From assembly GCF_014066305.1 (NCBI RefSeq), contig NW_023501039.1, positions 1,488,001 to 1,552,000 on the forward strand: a stretch of DNA of 64,000 nucleotides. The letters run 5' to 3'. The stretch comes from Letharia columbiana. Lineage: Eukaryota > Ascomycota > Lecanoromycetes > Lecanorales > Parmeliaceae. Both the position numbers and the translations under genes were made by a program. Of this stretch, positions 7,550 through 40,213 are shown piece by piece; the first letter of the stretch is position 1; every line of letters begins with the position of its first letter. A model generated the notes under the pieces. It searched no databases and was not told the origin of the DNA. It saw only the letters and a program-made list of their open reading frames with translations.

Positions 7550-8698
7550 ATGACTTCCAACCTCACGTCCCGCTGGACAACCCTCTACACTCGCACCCTC
7601 CCCACTCTCGCCCAGTCCTCCCAGCCCACCTGGCCCGTCCACCTAGACCACTGCTTCGCGCGCATCATCCTCGACGCAGTCATCGGCAACTCAACCTCCA
7701 GTCGCCCAGACGAAACGCCCACTCCATGGACCGCGAAGCTGAAATCGCCCGCGGTCAAGAACATGAGCCCACAGCAACTGGAAGCGTGTATAGAGCTCGG
7801 CGAAGCTATAGCCGAGGGAAGAATCGATCTGGTGGAATTGGACCAGCGGAGTTTGACCGTTCGAGGGAAGATGCTCAAGGGTGAGAAGAGGAAGAGGGAG
7901 GATGTGCCAGGCGACGCCGCTCCGGATATGAAGAAATCCAAGAAACCATCGCGAAGCCAACAAGGCGACATTCGAGCCGCCATGGGTGCGCCTCCGACGA
8001 CTCCGCCCAAATCGCCATCACCAGCGGCAGTCGATCCGGCTCTATCCTCTGAGATCACCTCGCATCCCACCCTCACACCCTTTCGCAGACGCGTCCTGCT
8101 TGCTCTTTGCCAAGTGCCTTCGGGCTCATACACTACCTATCTCGCTCTCTCGAATCATCTATCTTCCTCGTGAGTCTACTCTTCGGAACGTTCTTCCCCC
8201 CCCACGCCTCCCGCATTGTGAGCGGTAAGACGTGTCCTGAGAGGATTTGTACTCACTTGAAATGTTTCACCCCTCAAATATGTAAGTAGAAGAGGAATGC
8301 TGACCCAGAAACCAAGACCTCGTGCAGTGGGCAACGCGTTGAGAAACAATCCGTTTGCGCCACGGGTGCCTTGTCATCGGGTCGTCGCTGCTGATGGGGG
8401 CATGGGGGGGTTTGGAGGGGAGTAAGTGCACATTTCGGAGCAAATATCTCCTACTCGAATCCATGGTTCTTGAGCCACAAGACCTGTCTCGCGAGCAGTA
8501 GGCCCGTTTCAATCTCCGAATTTGTCTTATGATCTGTGCGTCTTGCCTCGAAGAAGCCATACTGACTCTGCAATGTGTAGGTGGGGGCCAAAGGGTAAAC
8601 ACAATGGGAAGAAAGTACGGCTGCTGAAGGGTGAGGGTGTGAAGGTCGACGCTGCGGGTGGGAGGGTAATGGGGTCACCGTGGTCGGGCTTCAAGTGA
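7550..8698 (+). CDS. MGT1: Methylated-DNA--cysteine alkyltransferase with extra N-terminal region
   Basis: Suicide repair enzyme that moves the alkyl group of O6-alkylguanine to its own cysteine. Exons 7550-8169, 8317-8421 and 8581-8698 give 280 aa. The C-terminal part is the alkyltransferase domain: VPSGSYTTYLALSNHL, RAVGNALRNNPFAP, active site PCHRVV (Cys 226), GGFGGEW and a family-type end. The first about 110 residues (WPVHLDHCFARIILD, ELGEAIAEGRIDLVELD) look like a compact second domain I cannot name, joined by a Lys/Arg- and Pro-rich linker (about 115-180). Introns are 147 and 159 nt, longer than the 50-60 nt introns of neighbouring genes; the second is an introner-like copy and the first has a related 3' end. 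The join from TCC TC to A CCT CGT is inferred from the conserved SSPRAVG sequence. Confidence 0.88.
8170..8316 (+). repeat. Intron with introner-like 3' block (alkyltransferase intron 1)
   Basis: A 147-nt intron. Its 3' end carries GCTGACCCAGAAACC just before the AAG acceptor, a weakened form of the block shared by the introner-like family. The rest is too diverged to align by eye. Confidence 0.4.
8422..8580 (+). mobile_element. Introner-like element, copy A (alkyltransferase intron 2)
   Basis: A 159-nt intron running exactly from GTAAGT to GTGTAG. Near the 5' end it has GCACATTTCGGAGC and near the 3' end ACTGACTCTGCAATGTG, which are imperfect inverted repeats of each other. The internal block GAGCCACAAGACCTGTCTC matches the same block in the introns at 19993-20147 and 23704-23859. 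It is a member of the intron family described in the findings. Confidence 0.8.
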
Positions 8699-9436
8699 GA
8701 TATGCAGAGAGAGTAAAGCTGAGATCCCAGGATGGGACGGGGGGTAGATATCTATGAGATAGTGAGAAAGCAACGACGAAAACGGAGGGGTGGCAGCACT
8801 CGAGGAGAGTTGACTCCTCGGGTTTTGAAAAACGTTCAAAGGCGACAAAGGGCAACTGTGACCGCTCCTCAATGAGCCCGCCGTTAAGGAGGGCCGTCTA
8901 TGGTCGAAGAGACCTCTTCGCATGAACTCTACGTTATGGCGTTTTAGGTTGTCTCAATGATGCACGAGCGAAGGGCAGCGTTTTCGAACCTGTTTTGAGA
9001 ACTTGGAAGAAGCGTCGAATCTTTGTAGAGAAGCGTTCTGTATGTACTCAGAGCTCTGCGTCAAGCTGCAGGCCTTCCGTCCAATGATATAGACCTACTT
9101 ATAGTATGCACACATAATTGCTGCGGTTCGGAAAAAGCGTGCTTGCACGGTCCCACGGCAAACTTCAAACATCTGACCAGAGCCCCAATGTGCATCCGTC
9201 AGGAGAAGCAACATACGATTCCAACCCCCACACCGTGCAGGCACACCATGTACACCACACCTGCCTTCCGAAATATACTATACCGGTAAAACCATCATCA
9301 TCCCAGGGTATCGCAACATCATGACGAAAAAGACCGCTTAACGAACGCTAAAAACGCCTCGACGAGCCTTGCCCTTCTCACGTTTGCCCCAATGTCTCTT
9401 GCTCGAGACCATGATAAAGACATCCATGAACCTACA
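8699..9436. other. Intergenic, no gene recognised
   Basis: This is the 3' spacer between the convergent alkyltransferase and PDE2 genes. Open frames on either strand are short and resemble nothing I know; no repeat stands out. Confidence 0.5.
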
Positions 9437-12400
9437 TCAGGGGCTGGCCTCCACGCTTTTACCTCTTTTCTTCCAAAAATTGAAATTGAATCTCGAGCCT
9501 TTCCTTCCAACAACGCGTTGATGCCCACCCCCATCTCTCATGCTGCCGTTGCTCATAACAGAAGTCTTGATGTCAATATCCTTGGCTCCATCCTGTCCAG
9601 TCACGTTTCCAGGTCGATGTCCATTCCCTGGTCGCTCCAAGTTCACGACGTCCGGCATTCCTTTGCGCTCGGGGCCAGCCCAGCTGTCTAATCTAGATTG
9701 AGAGCTCTTCTCATCGCTATCCACAGTCAAGACGCTCGTGGCCTGGGTCCCAGTTGGAGAGTATGGCGTAGATTGAGACATGCTGGTATTGTTGGTATGT
9801 GCGCCAGAAGATGAGCGATGGTGAGCGCAATGTGTGTACGGTCTACCTACGATTGTATTGGCCGTGAAGCGATTGGAGCGCCAATTGTCAGTATCATCGT
9901 CTTTGCTGCCGCGACGTGAAATATCTCCTGCCCCAGCGGATTCGCGAGAGCCGCGGCGACTCCCATTCGTAGACAGGCCAATTCCAGAAAATGCTGTTTG
10001 AGACAGAGTATCCTCAGACGCACGTCCTTTTGGTTGTATATTCTCAGAAGTGGTAACAGTAGATGCTGCCTGAGACCTTAAGTCGGCGTTCAAGCCTAAT
10101 TGCAGCTGACTAGGCGAGCTGTTATTCAGCCGTCTAGTGGTGACAGTTGCATGCGAAGTATTCGCAGCAGGAGACGCACCTGATGAGCGACGCGAGTATG
10201 AGGCTGAGTCGGTGGTAGGGTTCACTTGATTCAGATTGCGGCCGAGGGAGGAGCGGCGGGATGTATTCTGGCTATGAGCACCCGAATCAAAAGAGCCGAG
10301 ATGGTGAGGGATTGAGGAGGCTGACGCCCTACGCGGCTCGTCCGCCAATTGAGCAGCTTGCGCCATTGGCGAGGTCTCCAGAGGTTGAGATGCTGGCAGT
10401 CCTTCCGGATGTGAGAACTCAGGCTGACTGGCAGGACGGTCTGGGCTCCCTGAACGCGGAGATAAGAGACCCTCGGACGACCTTTGCTTCTTCCAACCCA
10501 TGCTATCCTCTTTGAATGTCTGTTTCTTGATCCTTTCGGTCCAGATCTCTTGGTTTGCTTTCATCTCGTCAACAGCGAACGCCATTGCAGGCAGAATATC
10601 AGTAACAGCCTCAAACAATGGACGCGCAAAAATGTTCATGAAGCTGTTTTGGGAGTTTCCGAGCTTGATAAGGTTGCCCAGCTCTGGCGGACCACCGAAA
10701 AGCGTGGTAGGTATGCCTACATCCTTCTCCATTACGCCTTGATTGGCAAATTCAAGCTGAAGAATGTTGGCCCATTTAACGGCGACTTCGAAAGGACGTG
10801 CCTGATATAACATCAATTCCATACATACATTACTTACCTTAGCAAGAGTACTTACAACGTTGCTAATGTCTGCACACTTGACAAGTAGGGCACATGTAAG
10901 TATCCTGTAGTCGTCTAGGACTTGAGGACTCCAGCCGTCGGTGCCATTGTTATGGTACACCTTACCCTGCAAATTTCCGAGCTCCCTCATATAATTGAAA
11001 TGCATACCCATATCAGTTGCTAATATTGAATTAATCATAAGCCCACGCATTGGGATGTCTTCGAATGCAGCCTTCCAGTAGCGGCGCAGAATCTGCGAGT
11101 AGGCTGCGCAGTGAAATGCTTCGAGCACGGATTTGTCATTGTATAGTTGAGCGAGTGGTGCGTTGAGAGCCACGAGGAACGCATTGTTAACACCCGGGTG
11201 GCCGACATCATGCCCAATCGCGGTTATCAGGAGTGTAAGAGCATCGAAAGGCTTCAGTAAAGCTGCGATTGGCGAAATCTCTCTGTTTACACCTGACTGT
11301 ACCGACGAAGCCGGGAAGGGAGGTAGCGTGCCAAGCTGGATTAAAAAGTAGAAGATGGCTTGCATGACATCAACTACGTGACGGAAATTGTGGTAATTCA
11401 CAAAGCCATTGTAAGCAGCACGGCTGGCCATCAAGAAAATCGTCAGATCAGCTGCGGATAGTCGCCATTTATCAAGTTCTGGGATGGTCAGAGCGTGTTG
11501 AAGCATAAGGAAGGCTGCGTGAATCAGATCATCTTCCGAGTAGTCGTGACCGGAGAAAGCCCAAGACCCAAGGGCGCGAGACAACGCTTCTTCCTTTCTC
11601 GATTCCAGAGGGGGCAGCTTTTTAAGGTCAATTGGGTGTAATTCTTCATCGGGGTTGCAGATGCCTTTCATCAGTCCTGAGACCATAGCTTCTCGAAGAT
11701 AAGCGTAGGGTTTGTTGTCGTTGTTGCCAAGCCAAGACCGCTTTCTCACTCTCTTCTGCGCGAGAAACTTCGCACGTTCGTTCCGCGCCTCCTTTTGCGC
11801 GCGACAAGCATGCACCGTCAAGCCACGAAGGCGTTCTACTTGCAAAGGGGATGTTAGGACATCTATAGCTCCAGTGTCAACGCATCTCAGCATCTGTTGG
11901 TATTCTGACAAGGCCGGGTTGCCGGCGGCCCTTCTCGGGCTGGAGGATGTCGATCCAAATACGGAGAAGCCGCCTGAGGAAGGCCGCGATGGGCGGTTGT
12001 TCGTGAACGTATGGCTGGTGGGACGTTCGGATCCTTTATTGTAAATCATCGCCACAGGTACGACCAGCTTTGAGAGGCTTGAAGTTGAGATCTCCGCCGA
12101 AATGTGCTCTAGAAGAGCGAGACCGTAGCAGTCTGCGAGCTCGGAGGACGAAGACTCTTTCGGAATCTCGTCCGAACGGCCTTCTACCCCTTCGTTGGCC
12201 GGCGTCCCCAGCATGACAAGTACAGGTTGGATATCAGTACTCAGAGATTCGAGATGTGAGACTTTAGCCATGCAAGTATCGCCGGAAATGCAGGTATGCA
12301 CTGTAACGTGTTAGTCGCTACAGCTTCGGGGGAAGTGATGTGTATTCTGATAACGCATGCCGAGGCCCTCTTTGGCGGAACTCCAAGGGTAAAGAGACGT

Positions 12401-12625
12401 ACCTCCATTGAATACGGACAGAAGACTCTTGAGGTTGCTGCGCACTTCTTCAACTTCTCCAAGGATAGCTTTCAAGCATTCCGGATTTCGATCCTCCCAC
12501 ATATGTTCGCCGTACGTGTTTGCTCCATCCGAACGAATTGACTCTGACTTTTGAACCACTTTTCCGTCGAGATCTCGGCTCAAACGGTTGTCGACATAGA
12601 CGATGTGGTACTCTGCATAGTCCAT
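9437..12625 (-). CDS. PDE2: High-affinity cAMP phosphodiesterase
   Basis: HD-fold class I phosphodiesterase that turns cAMP into AMP and damps PKA signalling. Exons 12625-12403, 12300-10856 and 10801-9437 give 1010 aa. Metal-binding motifs are in order: YHNFRH (about 378-383), GHDVGHPG (about 438-445), the NSILATDM segment and KCADISN (about 565) followed by ARPFEVAVKW. The invariant-glutamine region (NSFMNIFARPLFEAV) is present. The N-terminal 75 residues (YAEYHIVYVDNRLSRD, LLSVFNG) match the leader seen in fungal PDE2. The C-terminal about 300 residues are Ser/Asn-rich and probably disordered. Intron 1 is 102 nt. Intron 2 (10802-10855) is 54 nt, has no in-frame stop, and can be read through; removing it restores the conserved ISNVARPFEV. 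The 5' flank is long. Confidence 0.93.
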
Positions 12626-15409
12626 GACGGCTCGTCACAGCTGACCAATGTCGGGGCCCGTTAGGGTGGCCCGTATGTGGCGTGTGGGAGCTCTTTTGAT
12701 GTTGTGGCTACTCGTGTATTTAAGTAGAGATGGGCAGAGCGCGGGCTGCTAGTCAAGTCTTCCAGAATGCACGCAATGGTTAGATGAGATTGTTGTTTCT
12801 CGGTTGTTATGGGGCTCAGTAGAGCTCAATGGATGAGCGCAAGTAGTCTCTGATGCAGGCAGACGGTACGGTTCGTCCGCGCGAAGCGATGCTGCACGAT
12901 CAATCAGAGCAGTATCTAGGATACAGTTCTGCTTGGATCGAGCAATTGAGGAAAGAGGTTGCGAGGAGTGACGACTACTAAAGCGAGGTGGATCCCGCGC
13001 ATGTAGGTGAGGGAAACCGTGAGATCTGCGCTGAGAGCGATCCGTGCTACCGTGAGCAGTCGAGTAGTCTCGTCGAAATCCGAGGGACGGGTATGAGGGC
13101 AAATTGGCGACCATGTGTAATTGATATGGTTGAAGCAAAGAGTTCGTGAGCAATGCACGGTGACCTCCTCTTCTCACGTGCTCCTGCTCCTAATGGTACA
13201 CGACCAGCTTATCACGGTTTGGTAACTTGGATGTCGAAGACCTTGCTCTTCGCTTGCTATGTGCTATCTGATCGAAGCGGCGCCAGCGTCGCGGGCAAAG
13301 AGACGTTTGATCTATGCGCAACATCCGGTGCGAGTTTGAGGGGAATTACTTTCGCCAGCAAGGAAGGTTCGGGACATTGGAGCAACGTCGGATGGAGAAA
13401 CCAAGTTGAAGGTGGGCAGTTGACGTGAGGTTGGCCAGACAATGGTGTATGGAAGAAGCAGAAGGCGCAATAGTGGCAGGAAGGTAGAGATCGAGTAAGG
13501 GTAAGGGTAAGGGTAGGTTGATGGGAAGGAGAGGTTGAGGTTGTTCGAGAATAGTGGAGGAGTGTTGGCTTGGCCTGGTCAAAATAGGGTTTGGCGTAAG
13601 AACCGAAGTACTCCTTTCGCCGATTTACGATTTACGATTTACGATTTACGAGTACCTAGGGGTGTACAAAGAGTGTCAAAACATTGCTAAGACTCCAAAT
13701 CCCAGATGATAAGTTATTGTTTTTTTCTTCTTTTCTTTCTTTTTTTAAACAACGAGGAATCAAAAAATGAGAAAGGACATCTGGGATGACTTGGCGATTT
13801 TTGGGGGGGGGGGGGGAATCATCAAGCTTGTCCTGGTCCAATTCTGTTACTTATGGACTGATGAATTATTGCCAGGCGACAAGTGGTGCGGCTGATGCTT
13901 GACTAGAGTAAAGAGCGAGATTAGATACTTAAGAATTTTCCGAGCGAAAGGATATGCCGCTATATGAACTTGTGGACTACTTCTATGCTCCATGCATGGA
14001 ATTGATTGGAGAGAGGCTCCGAATACGGTACTCGTAATTCGTACGGTAAGTTACAGTAGTCAAAGGAAGGAATAGAAGTCTTTCATTCTTCCATCTTCAG
14101 GACCTTCCAGAAGCCTCTTCTGATTCGTCAGGAAATTCATTACGAGTAATTACATTACCTACTCACTAATTTAGTTTACCTTACATTAAAGTGGTGTATT
14201 ATTGATTGTGTACCGTGTATCTCATCTTTGTTTCACGCCGCGGGGAAATCCCTTCCCCTTCCCCCCACCCCAACTTTGAACGCATTGATCGTTTATAATT
14301 ACAAGAAAACCCTTGATTGCCACCGACATCTTCAACGCCTGAGCCCTGAGTGTTCAGAAGCCTCACCAAGTACTAGTGTATCTCACGTTCAGCTTTGCAA
14401 GATTCCTTTGCTTTACTTTGCTTTGCTTCGCTTTGTCCGAGTCCTGCGTAACCTTCTTCCAGGCATCTTAGCGATCGGAAAGAAGGCGCCATCTTCATCT
14501 TTCTTGCGACAGGAGCCTGGTCTTACCTTATTCGTATCTTTCTCCAACATGATGTCGATACAAGCTTAATAAGCTACCATACAACTGGCCGGGAAAAAAG
14601 CTGTTGACATCCTTCAAACCATGTTTGACCCTACCTACCTGCCTGCAGCCGAACGGTTGAACGATCGTGTCACTCAAGTTCCACTGACGCCCAAATAATG
14701 TGAGGCCACTGTCTGATGTAACCATTTCCATAAACATTAATAAAGTCTCACTGTTACTCACCCCTTACACCTTCTCACTGCTTGCCTGCAACGAATCCTT
14801 CAGTTCGCATCCTGTCACCTCTTTCCATTCCTATCTTGGACCCCCACAAAAGTGCTCTTCCCAACTGTGCGGCTGAGTACATCTGCGCTACAATGCGCCG
14901 CTACAATTTTTGCGCAATTACCATTCCCCATCAGGCCCAATGATTCGGTGCGCCTATCCGTTGGATGTCTGCCATCCCGCTATTGGTGTTTTGACTGCGG
15001 AGGACGAATACTCCCTACAACTTATAGGACAGGGCAAAAAACCCCGAGGCCGCCAAATCCCATTCCTCAGGCCGCCAAAAGCAATCCACTTCGAATCAGA
15101 GGTGCACAAATTGTAAGTCGAAGTGGAAAGTTTTTTGTAGCGAGGCCTACGTGTATCTTTCGACTACACTGACCCCAGCGATCAGGCTGATGGAAAGGCC
15201 CAAGCATTTCTTCGAGGTACCCTGAACCCCTAAAATCGCATGCGAGATAACACCGAAATTTAAAAATCCTGATGCTTGGAGGGAAGAAGAACCCTTAAGT
15301 CACCCCCACCAAATTTCCTCCCTCTGAGACATCACACGACGCCGTATTTGTATGGTTTCCAAGCCACGACAGAACATCTCTATCTAGATTTGGACAAGCT
15401 GAAGCCTGG
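12626..15409. other. 2.8-kb gene-poor stretch upstream of PDE2
   Basis: No gene recognised. It lies between the PDE2 start and the end of CCR4. The minus-strand frames at 12749-13177 and 13346-13582 are Ser/Arg- or Pro/Leu-rich and are more likely PDE2 leader or promoter than genes. Low-complexity tracts include GGGTAA repeats near 13495-13516, a 7-mer tandem at 13621-13651 and a run of G at 13803-13814. A frame at 14228-14569 (113 codons) has no recognisable features. Confidence 0.45.
13621..13651. repeat. 7-bp tandem repeat (CGATTTA)x4
   Basis: Four perfect copies of CGATTTA followed by CGA, in the upstream region of PDE2. Confidence 0.95.
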
Positions 15410-17765
15410 TCAATTGCTCCGCTCCCATTCTCGCTGCACCCCATTGGTGATCTCCGTACCCTTTGTTTCTCTCCGCTGCTTGACCGAGAACTCTGCTTTG
15501 AGTGCCAGGTGGTCGCTTGGGAAGTGATGATTGGGGAATCCTGGCACCTTCCGCAGATATTCTTCTTCGACACTTCCAAGCAGATGTCGGACCTGCAGTG
15601 CATTGGTAGAGTACCAAATGTAGTCAATGACCCCGATGAAGCTCGGCGTGTAATTTGTGAAACTCAGCTCCGCGGTCGTACTGTACGCAGACTTGAGCTT
15701 GAACGGATGAGCCATTCCTTCGCGGGTAAGACTGCCATACCCCCGATTCCCCAAGTCGGGATGATTACCAGGCAAGCTGCCACGCGTGATGAGATCGTAG
15801 ACCCCACTTCCAGCAGCGGCGTTAAAATCTCCACATATTATGAGCGGTATCTGAGGTCCGCTGGAATACTCGAGGGAGACACTAGGCTCGGGAGCAGGCT
15901 CATCTGCAGTATCTGGGTTGCCTCGGCTATCAACCTCGGAGTGGCGGAAAGCTGCTTTGTCGGTGCATGGAGGGTACTTTGCCCACTTTTCCGCTTGCTT
16001 CGATATTTGCTCCAGAAGAATCGCGACTTGAACCACTTTGACATCTTCAAACGCAGGATCCCAGAATATGTGCGCATTGCCGACGATCATCCTTGACCCG
16101 GTCATCCTGTTCTCAAGGAACGTTACCACGGCGACGTGATCTCTAGGCATGACGCGGTTGAAAGTATCGTGCTCGCCTTTCATGTCCGGCCGGTTGATGG
16201 CTGTGTTTGCAAAATCGATGAGAACTTTATCAAGACAGACATATTTACTTCCTTTGTAAAATGTTGCACATCCATCAACCAATTTGGCATCCTTTTCCGC
16301 CATGGTCTTTGCCCTTGTTTTCGGCCAAAAAACTCCACGATAGTCGTTGACAGCAAGCTCGCGGCGAAAGTATTCGTCAAAACTCTCGCGGTCGACTTCT
16401 TGCAGGCAAACGATGTCCGCGTCATGATCTTTGAGTTCATTGAGAATAACCTCCCTTCTATAGTCCCAAGAAAGCACGTCCGAAGGCGTGTAACCATAAT
16501 GCGACTTCGTAGCGTATTTATCGCATAGTATGTTGTAAGAAAGAACACTGAGAATCTCTGAGGCAGGAGACGTATCAATTTCCACACGGGGACGCTCATT
16601 GGGAGGGGTCCCAGCTGCAAGTCAGTCAGTCCGATTGCCCCCATAGGGGATTAAGAGTAACCTTATCATGTGAAGGATAATACATACGTGTAGCATTTTC
16701 CCTTAGATGAGTCACTAACGACTTTGTCCCATGGTGCACGATGTGCTCCTTTAGATCCTCATCTAAGGGATTCCCATCTACTCCTAGCGTCTCTAGTTTG
16801 AACAAATATCCCACCTCGTAAGGAAGCGTTTGCAAATTGTTGTCAAACACCAGGAGCTCTTTCAGATTGACGAGCATTCCGATTTCTTCTGGTAATTCCA
16901 TGATTTGGTTGTTTGATATATCCAGATGTGTCAGGCTCCTCAGATGACCGACAACGGGGTCAAGGCGTGCAAGCCGATTATGGTCGAGGTACAGTTTCTT
17001 GAGGAATTTGTAGGCAAAGATGGATGTTGAGATCGCCCTCATACCTTGACCGCTACAATCCAAGGCGTCCCAATCTTGTCTTGAGATCTCTCCAACAGTG
17101 GTGGCCCGATTGCGCTCTTCTTCACCTTCTTCAGCTGCCTCTTCGGCAGGCGTTGGCTCCAGGGCTTTGCTCACTCGCGATATTACCCCTTCTTTCTTGC
17201 AATGATGGTGCGGCGCCGATTGCGCCTGTCTCGATTCTGCGGCGAGCTGCATCTGACGTTGCCAATGCTGATTTGGTATGAAGTTGTCATTAATCCCCCC
17301 AACCTGAGAGTTGCTTGAATTGCCATTGTGAAGGGTGTTCGGAGTAAAATGAGGAGTGACGTTGGATAACGTTCCCGAGGAGAATGTATGCTGGTGGCCT
17401 ATACCGTGACCTCCGTTCTGGTTTTGCGGGTGGTGGTTGGTCTGTTGACCGTGGTGCTGCTGGTAAGATTGATGTTGGAACTTGTGGCCCGCGCCTGGCT
17501 GCATAAATCTCTGATGTTGTCCACCGTTCATCATGGCGTGCTGACCCTGCTGATGGCCCTGGCTGTACATCGCATACGGGTTCTGGGAAGAAGCTTGTGA
17601 TACAGGCGAGCGAGAGGGCGAAGGGGTGTCGTTGGCATAGCTACCTCTGCCACTGTTCACTGGAGAGCCGGATCGGGCCAGATGACGAGGATGGTGGTTT
17701 TGTTGACTATACTGGTTGTAGTAGAATGGTCCGGTTCCAGGGAACCGGTGTGCTCCATCTGCCAT
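15410..17765 (-). CDS. CCR4: CCR4 deadenylase, catalytic subunit of CCR4-NOT
   Basis: Mg-dependent 3'-5' poly(A) exonuclease of the CCR4-NOT complex; it starts mRNA decay in the cytoplasm. Exons 17765-16688 and 16614-15410 give 760 aa, with one 73-nt intron. Order: a His/Gln/Asn-rich disordered N-terminus (1-190), a leucine-rich-repeat block at about 235-340 (YKFLKKLYLDHNRL, LTHLDISNNQI, LKELLVFDNNL) that in yeast binds CAF1/POP2, then the EEP nuclease domain (about 375-740). Catalytic motifs are visible: YNILCDKYAT, CLQEVD, VDGCATFYK, NAHIFWDP, ICGDFNAAAGSGVY and the final FPSDHLALKAEF. The intron separates the repeat block from the nuclease. The split after AAT GCT ACA C and restart at CTGGGACC keeps frame. 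Confidence 0.96.
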
Positions 17766-19110
17766 CTAACAAGGTCGACCGAAAGGGAGACGACAGAGTA
17801 TACGTATTCTTCAGTGTAGCTATTGTTGTATTCAGATCTGTGATTGAGGAGGTGGATTTGCGTGAGGATCTTCGTTCCACCATAGGCATAGGAAAGTCGT
17901 TTGCGTGCTCAGGTCTAGGCTCGAGGGGCTGAAGTTGACCAATCTCCAGACTGAGGATTGAGGACGTTGTGATACCGTGAGGAGATTCCTGCCGGTGGTA
18001 TTGTTGCAATTTAGCAAGATAGATAACCCGTCCAATACACTCGGTCGTCCACTTCACAGCCACGCAAGCATCGTAGTCCTGGTGTAATGCGCGTTAGAGG
18101 AGACTCTGCGACAGCTTGTCAACGGGTTGCGGGTCAGGGTGTTAGGAGAAGACGCTAAGGACATGGGCTTCTCAAAAATGCAGTTGAAACTGATTGCGAC
18201 AACGTAGAAGCGTATCACAATTCTGGTTATTGCAATAATAATTAATGATAGCAGTCGAATGGCGTACCTTATGAATCCAACGAAAACGCTGCTGGTGAAG
18301 GTTCCGCCGCATTCTGTATAGAAGCGCGGAGCTACCCGCCTTAGCGCTAAGCTAGTCTCGCCAGTGCCCCTCGTGCTTTAAGGCTGACAGCCTGATGGTG
18401 ATGAAGGTACTCGTACAGTACTTCCATTTTAATCCCCTGTCACGTTGATACGGAGTCTACTTTGCTACAGCAGTGAATTTGAGTCAGGCATCTCCGCAAG
18501 TCCGATCAAACGCTTGCGAGTTGAATCATTCAATGACTAATTCGAAAAGGTTTCCGTAATGAATGCCTGCTCGTGTCTTGTGGTAGCTGAGTTCAATACT
18601 TGACCACAGTTTGGGTACTTCTCCTTTTGGATGCTCAGCTTTTCAGACGAAAATTTGAAGGCTTTCTTTTTATTGATTCACCCTCGTCACCTTCATTCCG
18701 AACTAAGGAACCAAATGAACGTGAAAGACCTCTGGATCCCCTGTCAAGATCTTATATCCCACCTTATATCCCACTTTGTACCTTCAAGTCTACCTGTCTC
18801 TGAACGACAATTTTCTTGCTGACAATATGACATAAGAGGATCTATATACATGGACTCCGTAAGGCGTCGCACACCATCCTTGGTGGATCCTTGAGTTCAG
18901 ATCATGGAAACTAGCACGCCTAAACCTTTGCCCAAGGGTCCTACCCCGTTGCTTTTTGAACCATATTTCTATATGTTTCGAGCTTTCAGACATTTGCTTC
19001 ATCTATACCTCCAGAAAACCGCTCTTGCACCAATGATATTATGAGGCTGCCGTCGCCTGCCTTTAGCACCATCATACAGACTCCAGGATCCGGGATTTGC
19101 AACTCAGTAC
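17766..19110. other. Intergenic, CCR4 upstream region, no gene recognised
   Basis: The first 300 bases are probably the CCR4 leader and promoter. Frames at 17597-17932 and 18600-18822 resemble no family. A plus-strand stretch beginning at about 18903 (METSTPKPLPKGP in one frame) could be the far N-terminus of the methyltransferase pseudogene that follows. Confidence 0.4.
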
Positions 19111-19730
19111 GGTGCTAGAGGGGGAACGTTTCCTAACCCAGCTCCTGTCAATGACCGCCCGATTAGCGACATGCCCTCTCCATTCGTCTATCGACAGGGC
19201 CGGCATTTTCTGGAAGATGCAAGCACATACCCACTGCCTATACATCTAAAGGAGCTAAACAGACAAAACTTTCGAACTCTTCTGCTGGCCCAAGTCTTCA
19301 GATGTCCATTTTGTAGCACGTTTCATGAACAGCCTGAGAAGTTTTTGGGGTCAGCTTGCGGGTCAGGCACGCTTACTATGAGTTTCTTCCTAATCTATAC
19401 CTCAGTCTGAGTTGAGGAGGAGGAACATGGAGGATTGACTGCAACATACACCATAAGTGCGGCCATCCCGTTTGCAAACGCCCAGAACAGATTCATCCAG
19501 GATCTTAATTTGTGGTTGGAAAAAGCTCTGTGCAAACAGAATTTGACGGCGACACCCTGTGCCCTCATAGGCTTTGACTTCTCAAGTGAGCCGGATGCTT
19601 ATAGTGAGATTTGCAATGGAAGGTTTGTAGTCCCCTTCGGGCCTGTGCGCTAGGAGCATGAAAGCGTATCCCATGAGCCCAGCGGGACGATAACATCTGT
19701 GAAGAGAATGAACGCGTTGAGGGCTTCAGC
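19111..19730 (+). pseudogene. Decayed SAM-dependent methyltransferase
   Basis: Two pieces of one fungal methyltransferase type can be read. The first (19171-19365) has PSPFVYRQGRHFLED, YPLPIHLKELNRQN, LLLAQVF and PFCSTFHEQP, then a damaged motif I (SACGSGT). The second (19438-19650) has TISAAIPFANAQN, WLEKALCKQN, ATPCALIGFDFSS and GRFVVPFGPV, which is the usual C-terminal part. The core of about 150 residues between them (motifs I to III) is missing, and several stops and frame changes interrupt the reading. I therefore call it a relic with an internal deletion. The parent family's substrate is not known to me. Confidence 0.65.
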
Positions 19731-19961
19731 GGCGGCCTGGAACATTCATCTTTGACATAAGACTAAGCGACCATCAGGCGGACAGCTTTGAGCATTGAGA
19801 TTGGATTTGTTATGGAGCCGCTCTTGATGAAAGAAAATAGTAAGAGACGAGATGAATTGACTGTTAGTAGGCAAACAAGAATAAAGACTGCTGCGAGAAA
19901 GATAGTACTTTCAACCGAGAGGGTCTCGAGCTTGGAGCGTTGCGAGCTCGCAAGAAGTATC

Positions 19962-20509
19962 TTAAGCTTGACCGTAGCGCCGGCGAAGCGCCCTGCGCAT
20001 TGTTCGGAGTCAGCATTGCTTATACGAGGTAGGCAATGGAGTTGCGAGCCAGATCTCGGGAGTAGAAAGGTCCTTTTGCTCCCGAAACATGTCTTGCGAC
20101 TCAAATTCAATACCAACTGGGACAGATCGGCTCCGAAATGTACGTACCTATATCGCTTCAAATAATAACTTGATTATCCATCGTATCAGCAACCTGATTC
20201 AGCGATGATGAGCACATGCTTACAGTGCCTCAATCTCCTTCTTCACATATTCGGCCCTCTCTATGCCCTTCCTGATATCCTTTTCATCTTGAAGACCGGT
20301 CTGACTGGCGAATGATTTGTGCAGGTGAGTCTGGAAGTATGGATAACCCTGAGGGTAATTCTTGCCCAAGTTCAGGAGCTCTGCGAATCTCCGCGGCTTC
20401 AGTTTAGCAGTAGTCCTTCGTGGTCTGGGGAACGGGGTATGCGGAGGAGCATTTGGAAATCACCTTTGTAGATGTTGATTACTTCTCGACGCAGACCTGG
20501 GTTAGTCAT
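19962..20509 (-). CDS. LYR-motif protein (LYRM5 / ETF regulatory factor 1-like)
   Basis: Small mitochondrial-type LYR protein; relatives bind the acyl-carrier protein and, for LYRM5, electron-transfer flavoprotein. Exons 20509-20464, 20380-20224, 20168-20148 and 19992-19962 give 84 aa; introns are 83, 55 and 155 nt. The N-terminus reads [18 protein letters not shown], with LRR in the place of the LYR triad, then [31 protein letters not shown] and the basic end [13 protein letters not shown]. This follows the whole length of LYRM5-type proteins. The third exon is only 21 nt, and the last intron is an introner-like element. It shares a 225-bp divergent promoter with the lipase. The function is inferred from family resemblance only. 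Confidence 0.85.
19993..20147 (-). mobile_element. Introner-like element, copy B (LYR-protein intron 3)
   Basis: A 155-nt intron running from GTACGT to GCGCAG on the minus strand. The ends ACATTTCGGAG and CTCCGAACAATG are near inverted repeats. Inside, GAGTCGCAAGACATGTTTC and CTCCCGAGATCTGGCTCGC face each other and can fold back. Both the interior and the 3' end align with copy C at 23704-23859. Confidence 0.85.
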
Positions 20510-20734
20510 CTCACAATGTAGCTTGCCGTCTTCGTTTCTGGCAGCTGATCGGCAGCTGTGAGATACATACAACATACTCTAGCACTAGACAGTTGACTGG
20601 AGCAGATTGACCGTCCCCACATTTTTGGGCACCTTCAGCCCTATCACAATCTTATCGATAAGGCAAGTACAGGTAGGCCGACGGGGAACAATTCTCGGGA
20701 ACTTGTTGCTGTTGTGGTGATTGCCCCAAATATA
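20510..20734. promoter_or_regulatory. Divergent promoter of LYR protein and lipase
   Basis: 225 bases lie between the two start codons. No defined element is recognised. Confidence 0.5.
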
Positions 20735-22954
20735 ATGACCTCTTATACAACAGAGGAGGGCTGGTGAGTCTACTTTTTGCATCATCTGAATACTTTTGTT
20801 TGCTATAAGTTGGCTTACAGACTCTTTTTGCGGGGCTCAAACCCCGGCTCAAAAAGTTGATGCTGACTCCGGAAACACGAAGGCATACACTTCCCGACGG
20901 GCACAAATTGTACACGAAGACCTGGATAGTCAGTAACTATCCACCTAAATTCTGCAACCCCCTACTTTATCCTTCAATTGACTGTCCGCCATACTTAGCC
21001 CACAACAACTCCTCACGCTCTGCTGCTCTTCGTCCATGGCTTTTCCGACCATATAAATAGTTACTACACTCTTTTTCCCACCCTCGCTTGTCGCGGCATT
21101 CAGTAAGTCTTCTCCAACTCATTTCTTTCCATCCAGAGGGCATTTTGAGTTACCAGGCACCCTGCCAGACCCGGTGCTTGTTATGCACTTCGCAAGCTGG
21201 AAACTTCAGCGTGAAAAGGGAGATTAGCGATCAAGACAGCGCGAATGTGAGATAGTCTACCATTCGCATGGTCTAATCATTAGACCTTCACTGACTTAAT
21301 GACTCTCTGAAGCCCCAGATCTCCTCCTATAGGGGGGGCTTAACGTCTGCTAGACCCATTAAGCGAAGGAAAACAATTTTTTACTCCCCTATGTTGTACA
21401 CCGCTCCGAAAGATGTAATTTCGTTTCGTGGATACACATTCCCAGTCAAGGAAGGCAACGCTAATATGGAGTATGACTGTAGATCCCATGCCTTCGATCA
21501 ACGCGGCTGGGGACGCTCTGTGCAGACACCCTCACAACGGGGTCTCACTGGGCCTACAGCGACGGTACTCAATGACATAAGTTCCATTATTGATTCACTG
21601 CTTGCAACAGCTGCATCAATGTCCGTCCCTGTTTTCTTGATGGGCCACTCAATGGGGGGTGCGGAAGTGCTACAATGGGCAGCTCGTGGTCCCTCGGATA
21701 TACGATCTCAGATAAGAGGCTATGTTGCTGAAAGCCCATACCTGACCCTCCACACGTCAGCACAGCCTCGTCGTATGATTGCAATAGCCGGTAGGTTAGC
21801 GGCGAAAGTCCTACCAAAAAGACAGATGTACGTATTTGCGCCGTCCATAATCCCTCTTTTGGACCAAATCTTGAGTCTTGATAGATGTCTTGGGAGTTTC
21901 GACTCTTTGGACATGTTCCAAGGCTCAAAAGATCCTCTCAAATAGGGAAACCTGACTCTGAAATTATCATCTAGGGTGCAGAAGCTGCAGCCCAGGTGGC
22001 TTTGCAGGGACCCGGCAGTATGCAAGAAGGTAAGCATGTTTCTTTCTCCTTCGGGGATGTCTTTGGGGCGTAGGGACCCGGCACGACACGAAATATCCTT
22101 TGCTGTAGGATATGACGGGAGAAAGCCATCAGAATTTCTGAGGTCCATCAGGCCTCAAAAACACTTCCCCGGCTTGCTCATTTGAACGGTTCTGCAGCCT
22201 TGAAGGCTCAATGCTCGTGAATCATTGCAATCTAAAGGGTAAATCTTATTAAGAAACATCAGACTTGCTGGCTCAAAGCTTCCATCTGGCTTCTTTGTCT
22301 AGATAAGTAGGCAGTCATCACTCAAATCCTGAGGGTCGGCTCCTCGTGGATCCGATCTCGGGTCTACATATTGTCTCTCGTTCAATATTTCAAGTCATAC
22401 GTCATGCCTTGGTTTTCTATCTCAAAGATGCTCTACTGACTTAGGAAACTATCAGTGGGAGGATGACGAGCTTTGTCATGATACGGGAACATTGGAAGGG
22501 CTGGTCGGGATGATGGACAGGGGAGCAGAGTTGAATTGCGACAGGATAGTTGTAGAGGATGAGAAAAGTTTTTGGATAGGACATGGGAGTGGAGACCGGG
22601 TCACGAGTTTCGAGAGCAGTAAGCAGTGGTTTGGACGATTGAAGGCAAAAGATAAGGAGTTCAAGGAGTAAGCAATCTTTCGATGTCATCTTCCCTGATT
22701 CAATGAAGAAGGGATTTGCGAGGGCCTCTATCTAGAGTGTTACACTCTAAAAATCCGCGTTCAAATACGAGATCTGTCCCGTTTTGGACATGCTGACTCG
22801 GAAGCTTTCCAGATATCCGGGATGGTTCCACAAGCTACACGCTGAGCCGGGGGAGGACAAGATCACTTTCGCAAACGACGTTGCAGGTTGGATCCTCGCT
22901 AGAGCAAACATTCAGAGGACGCAAGCCTTGTCAGAGCCACAAAGCAAATTGTGA
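20735..22954 (+). CDS. YJU3: Monoglyceride lipase (serine hydrolase)
   Basis: Alpha/beta hydrolase that releases fatty acid from monoacylglycerol, at lipid droplets or membranes in yeast. It was found by splicing: exons 20735-20763, 20883-20928, 20999-21102, 21483-21827, 21975-22029, 22456-22667 and 22813-22954 give 310 aa in one frame. Motifs in order: GWHTLPDGHKLYTKTW, oxyanion-hole FVHGFSDH, HAFDQRGWGRSV, nucleophile GHSMGG (Ser 116), RQMVQKLQPRWLCRDP, CHDTGTLEG, acid region IGHGSGDRVTSFESS and catalytic histidine in WFHKLHAEP. Introns are 119, 70, 380, 147, 426 and 145 nt, far longer than those in nearby genes; three carry the introner-like 3' block. All catalytic residues are intact, so I read it as a working gene. 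The acceptor at 22455 was chosen over the one at 22444 because only it keeps frame and gives CKKWEDDELC. Confidence 0.85.
20764..20882 (+). repeat. Intron with introner-like 3' block (lipase intron 1)
   Basis: A 119-nt intron with GCTGACTCCGGAAAC near its end and a small GC foldback (CGGGGCTCAAACCCCG). It is related to the introner-like family by the 3' block. Confidence 0.55.
21828..21974 (+). repeat. Intron of the introner-like family, diverged (lipase intron 4)
   Basis: A 147-nt intron. The internal GAGTCTTGATAGATGTCTT and terminal CCTGACTCTGAAATT correspond to the blocks in copies A to C. Confidence 0.55.
22668..22812 (+). repeat. Intron with introner-like 3' block (lipase intron 6)
   Basis: A 145-nt intron ending in GCTGACTCGGAAGCTTTCCAG (21 bases shown as GCTGACTCGGAAGC plus TTTCCAG). 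Only the 3' block is recognisable. Confidence 0.45.
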
Positions 22955-23445
22955 CAATTCTCCGACTAGCAAATTTTTGGGCTCTGAGACTATTCCGGAT
23001 GGTCTTCACGATGCATGGCTCGGTTAATGAGGTAGGAAGCACCGACCATACACTCTTACAGCACAGCAGCTCCTGTAGAAGAAACATGCAGCGCTCGAAC
23101 TGCGGCGAGAGCCTGCCAGTCCTGATGTATTTATTCGTACCGACAAAATAACAATAGTGAAATGGCCGAATTTGACTTCCAAGAAGACATTCAGAAAAGA
23201 TGTTGAGATATTATTTCCACAAGATTCAACATAGACAGCCCCTGAGATGTAGCTTTGCAGAACCAAAGCTCCCTTCGAGGAGGCCGCCTAAGTCCAGACA
23301 TTAGATAAGCCTTTTATCCTGAGGTAAAGACCCCCTTTTGTCAGATATCGGCACGAAAGTGACCGAGCTTCGACGCTTAACAGCGGCGCAGAGGTCTGTG
23401 TGAACGATGATCAACTCTCGTGGGCTCAAGACTCACCAGTGCCCA
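22955..23445. other. Intergenic, no gene recognised
   Basis: This is the 3' spacer between the convergent lipase and TRM61-like genes. It holds only short frames without recognisable features. Confidence 0.55.
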
Positions 23446-25139
23446 TCAATACTTCATCTTTTTCCAGACGCCGAGGAAACCTCCACCCGCCACTCGATAA
23501 CCGACTTTCGGTCTACAGACGATCTCCATTTCACTGACTTGATCGTGAATTGGTTGATTGTCTCCTTCAGCGGTACTTGCTCCAGCGGAGTCGGCCACTG
23601 CGCCGTCGTTTAAATCCTTGTCCGCGTCCCCTGAAGCATCGTCTTCGCGTATGGTATCTTTTGCCTTCCTCGTCAGTGCCCTTGGAGTGACAGTACGTAC
23701 ATCCTGCGCACATTTCGGAGTCAGCGTTGCTTTTCAAAGGCAAACCTCAGACTCGCAAGACACGTCTCGGGACCAGAAAGAGCCTTCTGCTCCAGAAATA
23801 TGTATTGCAACTCAGACCTCGGCATGAAAAAGGAAGGGATTATTTCGAAATGTACGAACCCAGTCCTTGCCTCCCGAGACGTTTAGTCCAAGCTCGAGAA
23901 CACTGTCAAGGACCAAAGGGAGATTGAGTTGCTTGACTATTTTAACAATAGAAATGATCTGCGTGATACTGGGATTGAAGGCAACCAGATTACCGTTGGT
24001 ATGCAATACAGACGCCGCTTTTTCGACATGATGAAATGAAGAAGGCATGTCCAGCACGATATGTGACAAGAATGCTTTTGCGTCAGGCCCAAGTCCACGA
24101 TTGGAGACCTGCTCGTCTATCCACCCGGAGATATCACCAGCATGAAAGACAATATCGTTGAAGTAGAGTCCCTGGCGAAACCCTTTTACAATCTGCTCTG
24201 CATGTTTTGAATGTTTCAAAGATACGTCTAGAGTATGGATGACCGCTTGCCGGTCATCACTACTATGTTCATAGGAGGGTTTTGATCGTGAATTCAGATC
24301 GTCTTCCCGTCCGGAAGACCTCGGAGAACCTGGAGCACCAATTTTGAAAAGGGGTGCTGACTGACAATCTTCTACCGCTTTACTACTTGGGTTGTTGGTG
24401 TTGGGTCGTAGAGCATTTGCTGCGTGAACAGCTTTAGCGAGGTACAATGTTAATCCTCCATGCCCAGTGCCTGCTTCGAGAATCTCTAAGGAAGGGGGAC
24501 CGTGAGTTGAGGGTGAAGGACTGGCGTGGATATCTAGCAACGAGACTATGAGATTGGCGTCCACTGGGTAGATCTACTGGTGGAAGAAGTAAGCCGCGTA
24601 TACATGGCAGAGAATTAAGTAGTCCCACAGGAGTCACAATGCGAGGAGTCATGGTGACATATTCAGCCAAGGTGGGAAGGTAGACTCTGAGGTCGGCTCC
24701 TCTACTACTCCTCACTAAGTCTCTTGTGTTTCTGCCAATGATTTCGCTATGCAAGATGTCGCCACTGAGTCATGTCGGAGTCAGCGTATCTCTCTTAGCA
24801 TCGGACCCCAATTGCCAGACGAGTTTTGGAACTGTTCCATTTCTAGAACAGGACTTGTCGCTCCAAATGCAGTACGAAGCCGGAAGAGATGGCTCCAAAG
24901 AGATGACTTACTGCTGAAGATTCGTCTTTCCATCTTGACGAAGTACGTTAGTCATGAACGGATCTCTCCCTTTCAGCTGCAGAACAACGCGATCACCGGC
25001 TGTCCCCAGCATGAGTTCATGGTTTGAAAGGAGTAATATGGGTTCACCTACCCTGTATTTTATTGTCGCCGCCTGAGACAAATCTTCGACAAAAGAAAGA
25101 CGACCTGAAATTGATCGGGCGCGTTGAAAGTGTTAACAT
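23446..25139 (-). CDS. TRM61-like tRNA (adenine-N1) methyltransferase, probably mitochondrial
   Basis: SAM-dependent enzyme of the TRM61 family, which makes 1-methyladenosine at tRNA position 58. Exons 25139-25052, 24999-24912, 24764-24629, 24573-23860 and 23703-23446 give 427 aa. The first exon encodes MLTLSTRPINFRSSFFCRRF, a basic, acid-free leader typical of mitochondrial import. Then come AGDRVVLQLKG, HSEIIGRNTRDLV, YLPTLAEYVTMTPRIVTP, YPVDANLIVSLLDIH, SAM motif I (LEAGTGHGG, about residue 136), VLDMPSS, the DVRTVTPRA strand and the conserved end VCRPKVGYRVAGGGFLGVWKKM. An open frame runs into intron 4 and stops at 23812, but only splicing from 23859 to 23704 restores the family C-terminus. 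Introns 2 (147 nt) and 4 (156 nt) belong to the introner-like family. A nuclear TRM6/TRM61 role cannot be excluded. Confidence 0.85.
23704..23859 (-). mobile_element. Introner-like element, copy C (TRM61-like intron 4)
   Basis: A 156-nt intron on the minus strand from GTTCGT to GCGCAG, in phase 0 between Trp and Asp codons. It has 5' ACATTTCGAAAT and 3' GCTGACTCCGAAATGTG as inverted ends, and the interior GAGTTGCAATACATATTTC and GTCCCGAGACGTGTCTTGC align with copy B. Confidence 0.85.
24765..24911 (-). repeat. Introner-like intron, diverged (TRM61-like intron 2)
   Basis: A 147-nt intron. The 3' block GCTGACTCCGACATG and the preceding GATGCTAAGAGAGATAC match the Rdx intron at 40003-40139; GCGACAAGTCCTGTTCTAG resembles the internal block of copy A. 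Confidence 0.65.
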
Positions 25140-38699: not shown

Positions 38700-40213
38700 T
38701 CATTTACAGTCTTGAGAAGCCTCCCCTCCCCCACGGCTTTTCTCCTTTTGTTGCTCTTCATTTCCGTTATCCTCGGCGGCAGCGCCCCTTGCTACAGCTG
38801 CATCAGCGTCTGTAGCTATCGTCCGCTCCTGATCGTCATTTGACGCCTTGAAGATGTTAGTCGAGGACGTTGTTCGACAATGTTGCTGAATACTTTCCTC
38901 GGCCTTCTCTGTCGAAGACTGGCCGGTCGACACGGAAGAATCTTTCTCGTCCGAAGCTGACCCAGGCTTCTGCCCGTTGTGATCGCGATCGACGTGACCT
39001 AGATCACGATCTGGGTCCACAACATTGCGGACCAGCTGTTTGAGGTTCTTTACTTCTGTGAGAAAGAAGCACAGGGTTAGCTAGAGTGATACATGTACCT
39101 TTACCTGGTTTGGAAGGCTCAGTGCTTAGGGATTCTCGAATGGCGTGAAAGAAATAGAAGTTTTGGCGGGCAAAAAGGACGGATACCGATCGTATTGACG
39201 ATGGGCACGAACGTCAAAGAATAAGGCTTGTCTTATAGATTTCAAGAAGAAAGAGAGTACCCTCCAGCCCCCCCCCCCCCCAAAAAGTTGAAGAAGAGAC
39301 ACAATTGAAAGGGGGAGAGGCACTGGGCACTGATCACGTAGAAATAACGAAGAGGACAGATAGAATCTTTGAGGACGTACCGGGAAAACCGCCTTCAGCT
39401 CTTCGATCCCAGAGTCGAGCCGTTTGGGTAGTAGGAGGTTGTCCATTGAGAGCTTCTTGATTTGACTGTGTAGATGCATAGATGATATCTATGGTGAAAA
39501 CACCACCCTTTGCGGGAATGAGCGAGACTTCGCCCAGGGATGTGGAGAACGTCGAGAGAAGTTCTTGGGCGAACTAAACAAAGTGAGCACGAGTAAGAGT
39601 TAGGAGGAGCATGTAAATTTTGAGAGTCATCAAATTTGAGAATTGGGCGGCATTTTTTCCGCAGCATCAAATTGCATAGTTACGCATAGCGGAGCAAACC
39701 CTTTCATAAATATTTCTGACAGTAGAATCGGAGGTACCATGTTCTTGGAAGAAGAGACCTGTACAACATGATAACTTTGACGTTCGAAATATGAGAGAAA
39801 AGCCTGTGGTTGCTGGCACTTTTTACCTGGAAGAAATACAATTAAATCCCAAAGTGTTTGATATTATGCTGCCACTCCGGGAACAAGTCGCGAATCAAGT
39901 AAGTATGGAGGAAGAGACTCCCAAGTTCGAAAGCAAGATACTCGATGACTGCAAAGAACGGGCATCTGACGTACGTATGCCGCACGAAGCATCCATTTGC
40001 ATCTATATGATTTCGGAGTCAGCATAGCTCTCTATTAGGATCAGATCTGAGTCGTAGAAAACGCTCTGAAATGTTTAACTCCAAGACGCTGTACGGGTCA
40101 GGGAGCAACGGCATTATGGCTCGGAAAAGAAAACTTAACTGAGTACAAAATCTGATCGTAATGCGAGGTAAATGCACAGGGGCTAGGGATTCTGCCTCAG
40201 GCGCAGATTCCAT
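38700..40213 (-). CDS. Rdx / SelT-SelW-like thioredoxin-fold protein
   Basis: Fungal member of the Rdx family (selenoprotein W/T/H-like, redox-active CxxC instead of CxxU). Exons 40213-40140, 40002-39975, 39573-39381 and 39055-38700 give 216 aa. The first join gives RFCTQCKWMLRAAY, so the CxxC is split by an intron. Next come FAQELLSTFSTSLGEV, IPAKGGVFTIDI, LWDRRAEGGFP and EVKNLKQLVRNVVDPDRDLGH, which follow the family. The C-terminal about 100 residues (Ser/Glu/Asp-rich) are an extra disordered tail. Exon 2 is only 28 nt. Introns are 137, 401 and 325 nt, long for this window; the first carries the introner-like 3' block. Its biochemical role in fungi is not known to me. Confidence 0.85.
40003..40139 (-). 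repeat. Introner-like intron, diverged (Rdx intron 1)
   Basis: A 137-nt intron. GATCCTAATAGAGAGC and GCTGACTCCGAAATC near its 3' end match the TRM61-like intron at 24765-24911; ACATTTCAGAGC lies inside it. Confidence 0.65.

What the first reader, a model, noticed from the sequence alone, without database searches (positions are those of the whole stretch)
8422..23859. One intron sequence present in three unrelated genes: an introner-like element family
Introns at 8422-8580 (alkyltransferase, + strand), 19993-20147 (LYR protein, -) and 23704-23859 (TRM61-like, -) are 159, 155 and 156 nt. They share alignable blocks when read in the sense of their own gene. The internal block is GAGCCACAAGACCTGTCTC, GAGTCGCAAGAC(A)TGTTTC-type and GAGTTGCAATACATATTTC respectively; the 3' block is ACTGACTCTGCAATG, GCTGACTCCGAACAATG and GCTGACTCCGAAATG. 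Introns of unrelated genes should not be similar. All copies lie in the sense direction and fill the intron exactly from GT to AG. Introner-like elements are established in some Dothideomycetes and in several algae and other eukaryotes, so this may be a new or little-known family.
Basis: partly seen in the sequence, partly recalled or inferred. Interest (0 to 1): 0.92.

Follow-up and report, generated by a model that had tools for sequence, protein, structure and literature searches.

The report
Introner-like elements in a lichen fungus
A wolf-lichen fungus carries at least five families of look-alike introns, scattered through unrelated genes and apparently descended from hairpin-shaped ancestors, a known kind of self-copying intron in a group of fungi where I found no earlier report of it.

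Summary
The three introns are 70-72% identical end to end in gene sense and beat all 500 shuffles. The genome, whose assembly statistics equal those published for Letharia columbiana, holds many more: a 22-base 3'-end pattern matches 163 places (control 0), and two further families have at least 40 copies each, one with a fourth copy in this window at 21828-21974. Copies run from GT to AG and lie mostly in coding sense (119 of 150 scored). Target-site repeats of 3 bases or more are not in excess over chance among 109 copies. At one young copy, 111 of 120 listed homologous proteins run straight through the site. All five family consensuses fold better than shuffles; in A, B, C and E the intron ends pair. 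Single copies lose pairs as independent mutation predicts, while the B and E consensuses are more stable than nearly all simulated drift from A; D is less clear. I read these as introner-like elements whose hairpin serves copying, not splicing. Scarless, symmetrical introners are known from other ascomycetes; the host lineage appears new.

The parts
8422..8580 (+). Introner-like element, C family (GTAAGTGCACATTTCGG..GCAATGTGTAG), in an alkyltransferase (MGMT-like) gene
   Evidence: (9 matches genome-wide)
19993..20147 (-). Introner-like element, A type, in a LYR-motif protein gene; it follows another intron's AG with no exon between
   Evidence: (97% identical to L010)
20148..20223 (-). Ordinary-looking 76-nt intron (GTAAGC..TATAG) that the LYR copy abuts; borders by eye
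23704..23859 (-). Introner-like element, B family, in a TRM61-like tRNA methyltransferase gene; junction GKDW|DVRT
21828..21974 (+). Fourth introner-like element, E family (GTACGTATTTGCGCCGTCC..CTGACTCTGAAATTATCATCTAG)
24765..24911 (-). Weaker relative, intron-like, 147 nt; borders by eye
8170..8327 (+). Weaker relative: the preceding intron of the alkyltransferase gene; borders by eye
40003..40054 (-). 3' part of a further relative (GCTGACTCCGAAATCATATAG); its 5' end was not defined

Best explanation
These are introner-like elements: spliceosomal introns that multiplied by copying themselves into unrelated genes of the lichen fungus Letharia columbiana. At least five related families (A to E) exist, mostly 134-163 nt long, each carrying its own donor, branch point and acceptor. 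Shown: similarity across unrelated genes, GT-to-AG extent, sense bias, no excess of target repeats of 3 bases or more, an uninterrupted site in relatives at one young copy, and family consensuses that fold far better than shuffles. Inferred: the hairpin serves multiplication and not splicing, because landed copies lose it at the rate of independent mutation while the B and E consensuses, 21-32% diverged from A, still have it. Most likely route, inferred and not shown: the excised, folded intron RNA is put back into DNA by reverse splicing or at a break, leaving no scar.
For: Copy number: 163 3' ends, control 0; D and E at least 40 each. Coding sense: 81 of 110 (A-C), 20 of 20 (D), 18 of 20 (E). 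Pfam domains cross the splice junction in 8 of 10 spliced proteins chosen for long frames. Target repeats of 3, 4 and 5 or more bases in 3, 1 and 0 of 109 copies against 1.85, 0.48 and about 0.2 expected. L010 site continuous in 111 of 120 listed homologs, 36 of which read into the next intron and so look genomic. Consensus fold z -10.1, -7.3, -3.6, -6.2, -6.6 for A to E. Pairs kept against expected if independent: 0.835/0.833, 0.837/0.829, 0.820/0.822, 0.889/0.892, 0.889/0.881. Drift of A by 20-32%: 0 of 200 per step reach B, 0-1 of 200 reach E.
Against: 29 of 110 A-C copies scored better antisense and 27 of 110 had no open sense frame; 19 of 64 with long flanks had the longer frame antisense. 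Sense bias may come from selection alone. Taking a consensus itself favours a stable fold. If A and the others diverged from a midpoint, 10% drift reaches B in 1 and E in 11 of 200, and D is reached in 4-13 of 200 even at 20-32%. Compensatory changes: one pair in ten family comparisons. C copies have GT after the acceptor in 6 of 6, as a 2-base target duplication would give. No RNA reads seen.
Confidence: 0.8

Rival explanations
1. Non-autonomous DNA transposons (MITE-like): the terminal inverted repeats are transposase sites that also hold the splice sites, and a transposase in trans moves the element as DNA.
For: Ends are inverted repeats (A 15 pairs between the first 20 and last 25 bases). 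C copies have GT..GT on both sides in 6 of 6, plus L002, which fits a 2-base duplication with the donor as one copy. Flank preferences differ by family. Introners elsewhere often have TIRs or TSDs (PMC9860276, passages).
Against: No excess of repeats of 3 or more bases in 109 A-C copies; D and E show one chance-size repeat each in 20. Sense bias 119 of 150, though selection could cause it. No transposase was looked for.
Confidence: 0.22
2. Ordinary introns that look alike because of shared splice signals or because their genes are duplicates.
For: Donor and branch motifs are constrained in fungal introns (recalled). Four of 114 copies shared flanks and were removed as duplicates.
Against: Similarity covers the whole length and a non-splicing internal block; hosts are unrelated proteins: GH32, MFS, peptidase S10, acyltransferase, phosphomannose isomerase, amidase, permease, cupin.
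Confidence: 0.02
3. Structured RNA genes (such as intronic snoRNA-like RNAs) carried by introns and kept for a function.
For: Strong consensus hairpins.
Against: No Rfam match at gathering score in seven loci; pairs decay as independent mutation predicts, so landed copies show no upkeep.
Confidence: 0.04

Closest known systems
Introner-like elements of Dothideomycetes (Fulvia fulva, Dothistroma septosporum, Zymoseptoria tritici; PMC4457414, parts 1-3 of 4 read)
   Same: Sequence-alike spliceosomal introns in unrelated genes, several families per genome, degrading with age; parallel gains at nearly the same position.
   Different: Different class of fungi. Sequences could not be compared (supplements not available to me). 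The copies here are older on average than the 98-99% identical ones reported there.
Sister stwintrons and cropped sister introns of Hypoxylaceae and Xylariaceae (PMC8469720, abstract, sections 3.5 and 4; PMC12403724, abstract, one results section, discussion)
   Same: Terminal inverted repeats, a hairpin that brings the two end Gs together, seamless insertion without target duplications, symmetry lost in older copies.
   Different: Here single GT-AG introns of about 155 nt; the NTIRE-10 sequence quoted there (GUAUAAAAAC) is not in the family consensuses printed. Flank preferences seen here were not seen there.
Introners sensu Gozashti et al. 2022 (PMC9860276, passages)
   Same: Introns multiplied through a genome, some families with terminal inverted repeats.
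   Different: Those often have 3-9 bp target duplications and may recruit a splice site; [quoted passage not shown]

Membership tests
Introner-like elements (fungal) | Many sequence-alike introns in unrelated genes of one genome | tested here: met
Introner-like elements (fungal) | Copies coincide with the intron, GT to AG | tested here: met
   114 of 115 copies that passed the score and completeness filters could be given GT and AG borders, by a rule that looks for them near the profile ends
Introner-like elements (fungal) | Spliced from mRNA | tested here: inconclusive
   P0241, an unnamed contig protein identical over the query, joins exons exactly at the L010 borders with neighbouring introns gone too, as a transcript would; its species and whether it holds the element are unknown
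Introner-like elements (fungal) | New intron position, empty in relatives | tested here: met
   L010: 111 of 120 listed homologs continuous, 9 unreadable. Only this site; TRM61 unresolved
DNA-transposon-type introners | Terminal inverted repeats | tested here: met
   A, B, C, E consensuses: 15, 15, 15 and 13 pairs joining the ends; D not at its extreme ends
DNA-transposon-type introners | Target-site duplications of 3-9 bp | tested here: not met
   a 2-base GT repeat in C remains possible
[D1,2] sister stwintrons | Internal intron splitting the donor of an external intron | not tested
   Copies are modelled as single GT-AG introns; a longer variant of about 218 nt (L088, L131) was not examined for nesting

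The most novel reading that the evidence does not exclude
The hairpin is a copying signal of the intron RNA itself: lineages that keep copying keep an end-to-end hairpin that holds the two splice-site Gs together, while landed copies are free to lose it. The same design in lichen fungi and in Xylariales would point to one RNA-based copying route for ascomycete introners that needs no transposase and leaves no scar.
Probability: 0.4. Interest if true: 0.78.

Novelty: new member of a known kind. Interest (0 to 1): 0.57.

Why it matters
Where new introns come from is an old open question. Here is a multi-family case in a class of fungi for which my searches found no introner report, with paired ends, scarless sites and copies of different ages. 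Other Letharia genomes and L. lupina RNA reads are published (PMC10512270, passages), so gain, splicing and loss can be tested directly. It also bears on the published statement that ascomycete introners lack terminal inverted repeats.

Tried and rejected
Target repeats: exact at 2-10 bases and, with offsets, at 3-8 bases. Exact: no excess. With offsets, the strongest of many tried was 7 against 1.7 expected (3 bases), treated as noise. Six of 109 copies have 6-7 base repeats within 14 bases of the junction against about 2 expected; their offsets differ, so I do not take them as duplications, but it is an excess.

Covariation: RNAalifold found little shared fold in A and B. Consensus-to-consensus alignment gave one compensated pair in ten comparisons. 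By eye A against E had suggested three; the computed alignment did not bear that out and I dropped it. Terminal pairing is no stronger within copies than between copies (-14.8 against -15.2 kcal/mol, 46 copies).

Rfam: no match in seven loci. Plasmid search: none, a poor choice of collection. A 12-base motif in paper texts: two unrelated papers by title. A strict two-ended pattern found only 5 places.

TRM61 site: P0121 (98% identical) runs straight through and begins at a GTG just after the upstream intron, as a genomic frame without the element would; but P0135, 94% identical to a Cornicularia normoerica protein over 245 aligned columns, reads on as VRTFRSDVFLF, which fits a B element in the same place. 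If the two insertions are one event, P0121 lost it or comes from part-spliced RNA. Unresolved. P0129 reads through an insert ending ILTRACAG, which by back-translation resembles a C element two bases upstream; inference only.

Not done: transposase search, RNA reads, survey of intergenic copies, sister genomes (not held), comparison with published element sequences.

Full report
WHAT IS THERE. TRM61 against the reverse complement of LYR also scores 53, because the elements are close to palindromic.

ORGANISM. The window lies in G000, 52,243,142 bases in 161 contigs; contig 1 has 2,188,364 bases and contig 32 has 666,803. A published table gives Letharia columbiana 161 contigs, largest 2,188,364, 52.2 Mb, and the figure 666,803, which I take as N50 (PMC9146135, passages). 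The best named homolog of a window protein is from Alectoria fallacina, 89% identical. I take the host to be the wolf-lichen fungus Letharia columbiana (Lecanoromycetes, Parmeliaceae).

FAMILIES AND NUMBERS. Searches with the three introns gave 9, 40 (of 103 candidates) and 30 matches. The 22-base 3' end with up to 3 mismatches occurs 163 times (control 0); a 14-base core with up to 1 mismatch 309 times (control 12), D copies included; the 17-base 5' end with up to 2 mismatches 167 times (control 11), some of which are the reverse complement of 3' ends. Flanks of these copies revealed families D and E, with 40 scored matches each (56 and 73 candidates). A profile built from such copies gave 174 non-redundant matches of 198 in the loci held then, many partial or degraded. 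Mean pairwise identity is 0.75 (A, 28 copies), 0.70 (B, 19), 0.73 (C, 6), 0.85 (D, 20 best matches) and 0.77 (E, 20 best matches), so most are not fresh; LYR and L010 are 97% identical, as is the closest D pair. A longer variant of about 218 nt exists.

IN GENES AND IN SENSE. Of the 174 matches, 115 passed score and completeness filters, 1 lacked a GT, 4 were removed as duplicates, and 110 were tested. 81 had better codon scores in sense than antisense over the spliced junction; 83 had an open sense frame against 45 with an open antisense frame. Of the 20 D and 20 E copies fetched (the best matches), 20 and 18 scored better in sense. Of 64 copies with long flanks, 45 had the longer joined frame in sense and 19 antisense. 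I passed ten spliced proteins, from among those with the longest frames, to Pfam: nine matched a family, and in eight the match crosses the splice junction. This choice shows the kind of host gene, not a rate. I did not survey intergenic copies, and selection alone could remove antisense copies from genes.

INSERTION SITES. Among 109 A-C copies, exact repeats of 2, 3, 4 and 5 or more bases number 5, 3, 1 and 0 against 6.3, 1.85, 0.48 and about 0.2 expected. D has one 3-base repeat (0.26 expected) and E one 4-base repeat (0.1 expected) in 20 each. Families differ in flank preference: A has A after the acceptor in 24 of 38, B has G before the donor in 17 of 19, E in 11 of 20, D has 4 of 20, and C has GT after the acceptor in 6 of 6, as has L002 found by a looser rule. 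The C pattern is the one hint of a 2-base duplication. Three of the 110 copies directly follow another intron's AG: L011 and L054 follow another copy, LYR an ordinary-looking intron.

EMPTY SITES. At the L010 element (an MFS transporter), 111 of the 120 listed homologs run through the site; 9 had no readable motif (the search itself found 4708). By a simple motif rule 36 of the 111 read on into the next intron, so they look genomic. The insertion is thus young and seamless at protein level. P0241, from an unnamed contig and identical over the query, has this element and its neighbour introns all absent, as a transcript would. For TRM61, of 100 listed homologs with a readable junction (of 120 listed), 94 are continuous and 6 read into an intron at this place; one resembles a B and one a C element by back-translation, so several relatives hold introns here and the history is unresolved.

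HAIRPIN. Consensus fold z-scores are -10.1 (A), -7.3 (B), -3.6 (C), -6.2 (D) and -6.6 (E). A is one stem of 55 pairs from bases 2 and 154 inwards; both end Gs are unpaired in A, B, C and E, the branch A is unpaired in A and C but paired in B and E. D pairs internally, not at its extreme ends. No copy equals its family consensus in stability (0 of 28, 19, 6, 20 and 20), and pairs persist only as independent mutation predicts (A 0.835 against 0.833, B 0.837 and 0.829, C 0.820 and 0.822, D 0.889 and 0.892, E 0.889 and 0.881). A consensus by itself favours a stable fold, so I added a drift test: mutating A at random by 20-32% (B is 21% and E 32% away) gave 0 of 200 per step as stable as B and 0-1 of 200 as stable as E, but 4-13 of 200 as stable as D; at 10% drift, 1, 11 and 64 of 200. 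C was not compared. I conclude with moderate confidence that source lineages kept a hairpin which landed copies do not.

MECHANISM AND KNOWN KIND. This matches fungal introner-like elements (PMC4457414) and the symmetrical introns of Hypoxylaceae, whose authors propose that folded intron RNA is joined into DNA breaks (PMC8469720, PMC12403724). A large survey describes ascomycete families as an outlier without TIRs or TSDs (PMC9860276); it used annotations accessed on 10 April 2020, and I could not check whether Letharia was in it. Text searches for introner with lichen (2 papers, neither on lichen introners by title and abstract start), introner with Lecanoromycetes (none) and Letharia with genome and intron (15 of 24 listed, none on introners by title) found no earlier report. 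They cover only the held open-access library, without supplements.

Noticed in passing
window 20148-20223 (-) with 19993-20147 (-); L011; L054: Three of 110 copies sit directly behind another intron's AG with no exon between, as if splice junctions were favoured targets.
   Followed up: partly
L001-L008 (C family copies): GT follows the acceptor in 6 of 6 C copies with defined borders, plus L002; this could be a 2-base target duplication in which the donor GT is one copy.
   Followed up: partly
L088, L131 (also pieces in L011, L075, L081, L118, L119): A longer variant of about 218 nt whose two halves each match the profile, possibly an internal duplication or nested intron.
   Followed up: partly
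homologs P0129, P0135, P0148, P0149, P0153, P0169 of the TRM61-like protein: Six listed homologs read into introns at nearly the same place with different sequences, as if the site were a hot spot for intron gain.
   Followed up: partly
L028 (C109) and L029 (C77); L105 (C68) and L109 (C101): Copies with matching flanks on different contigs suggest duplicated or overlapping contigs in the assembly.
   Followed up: no
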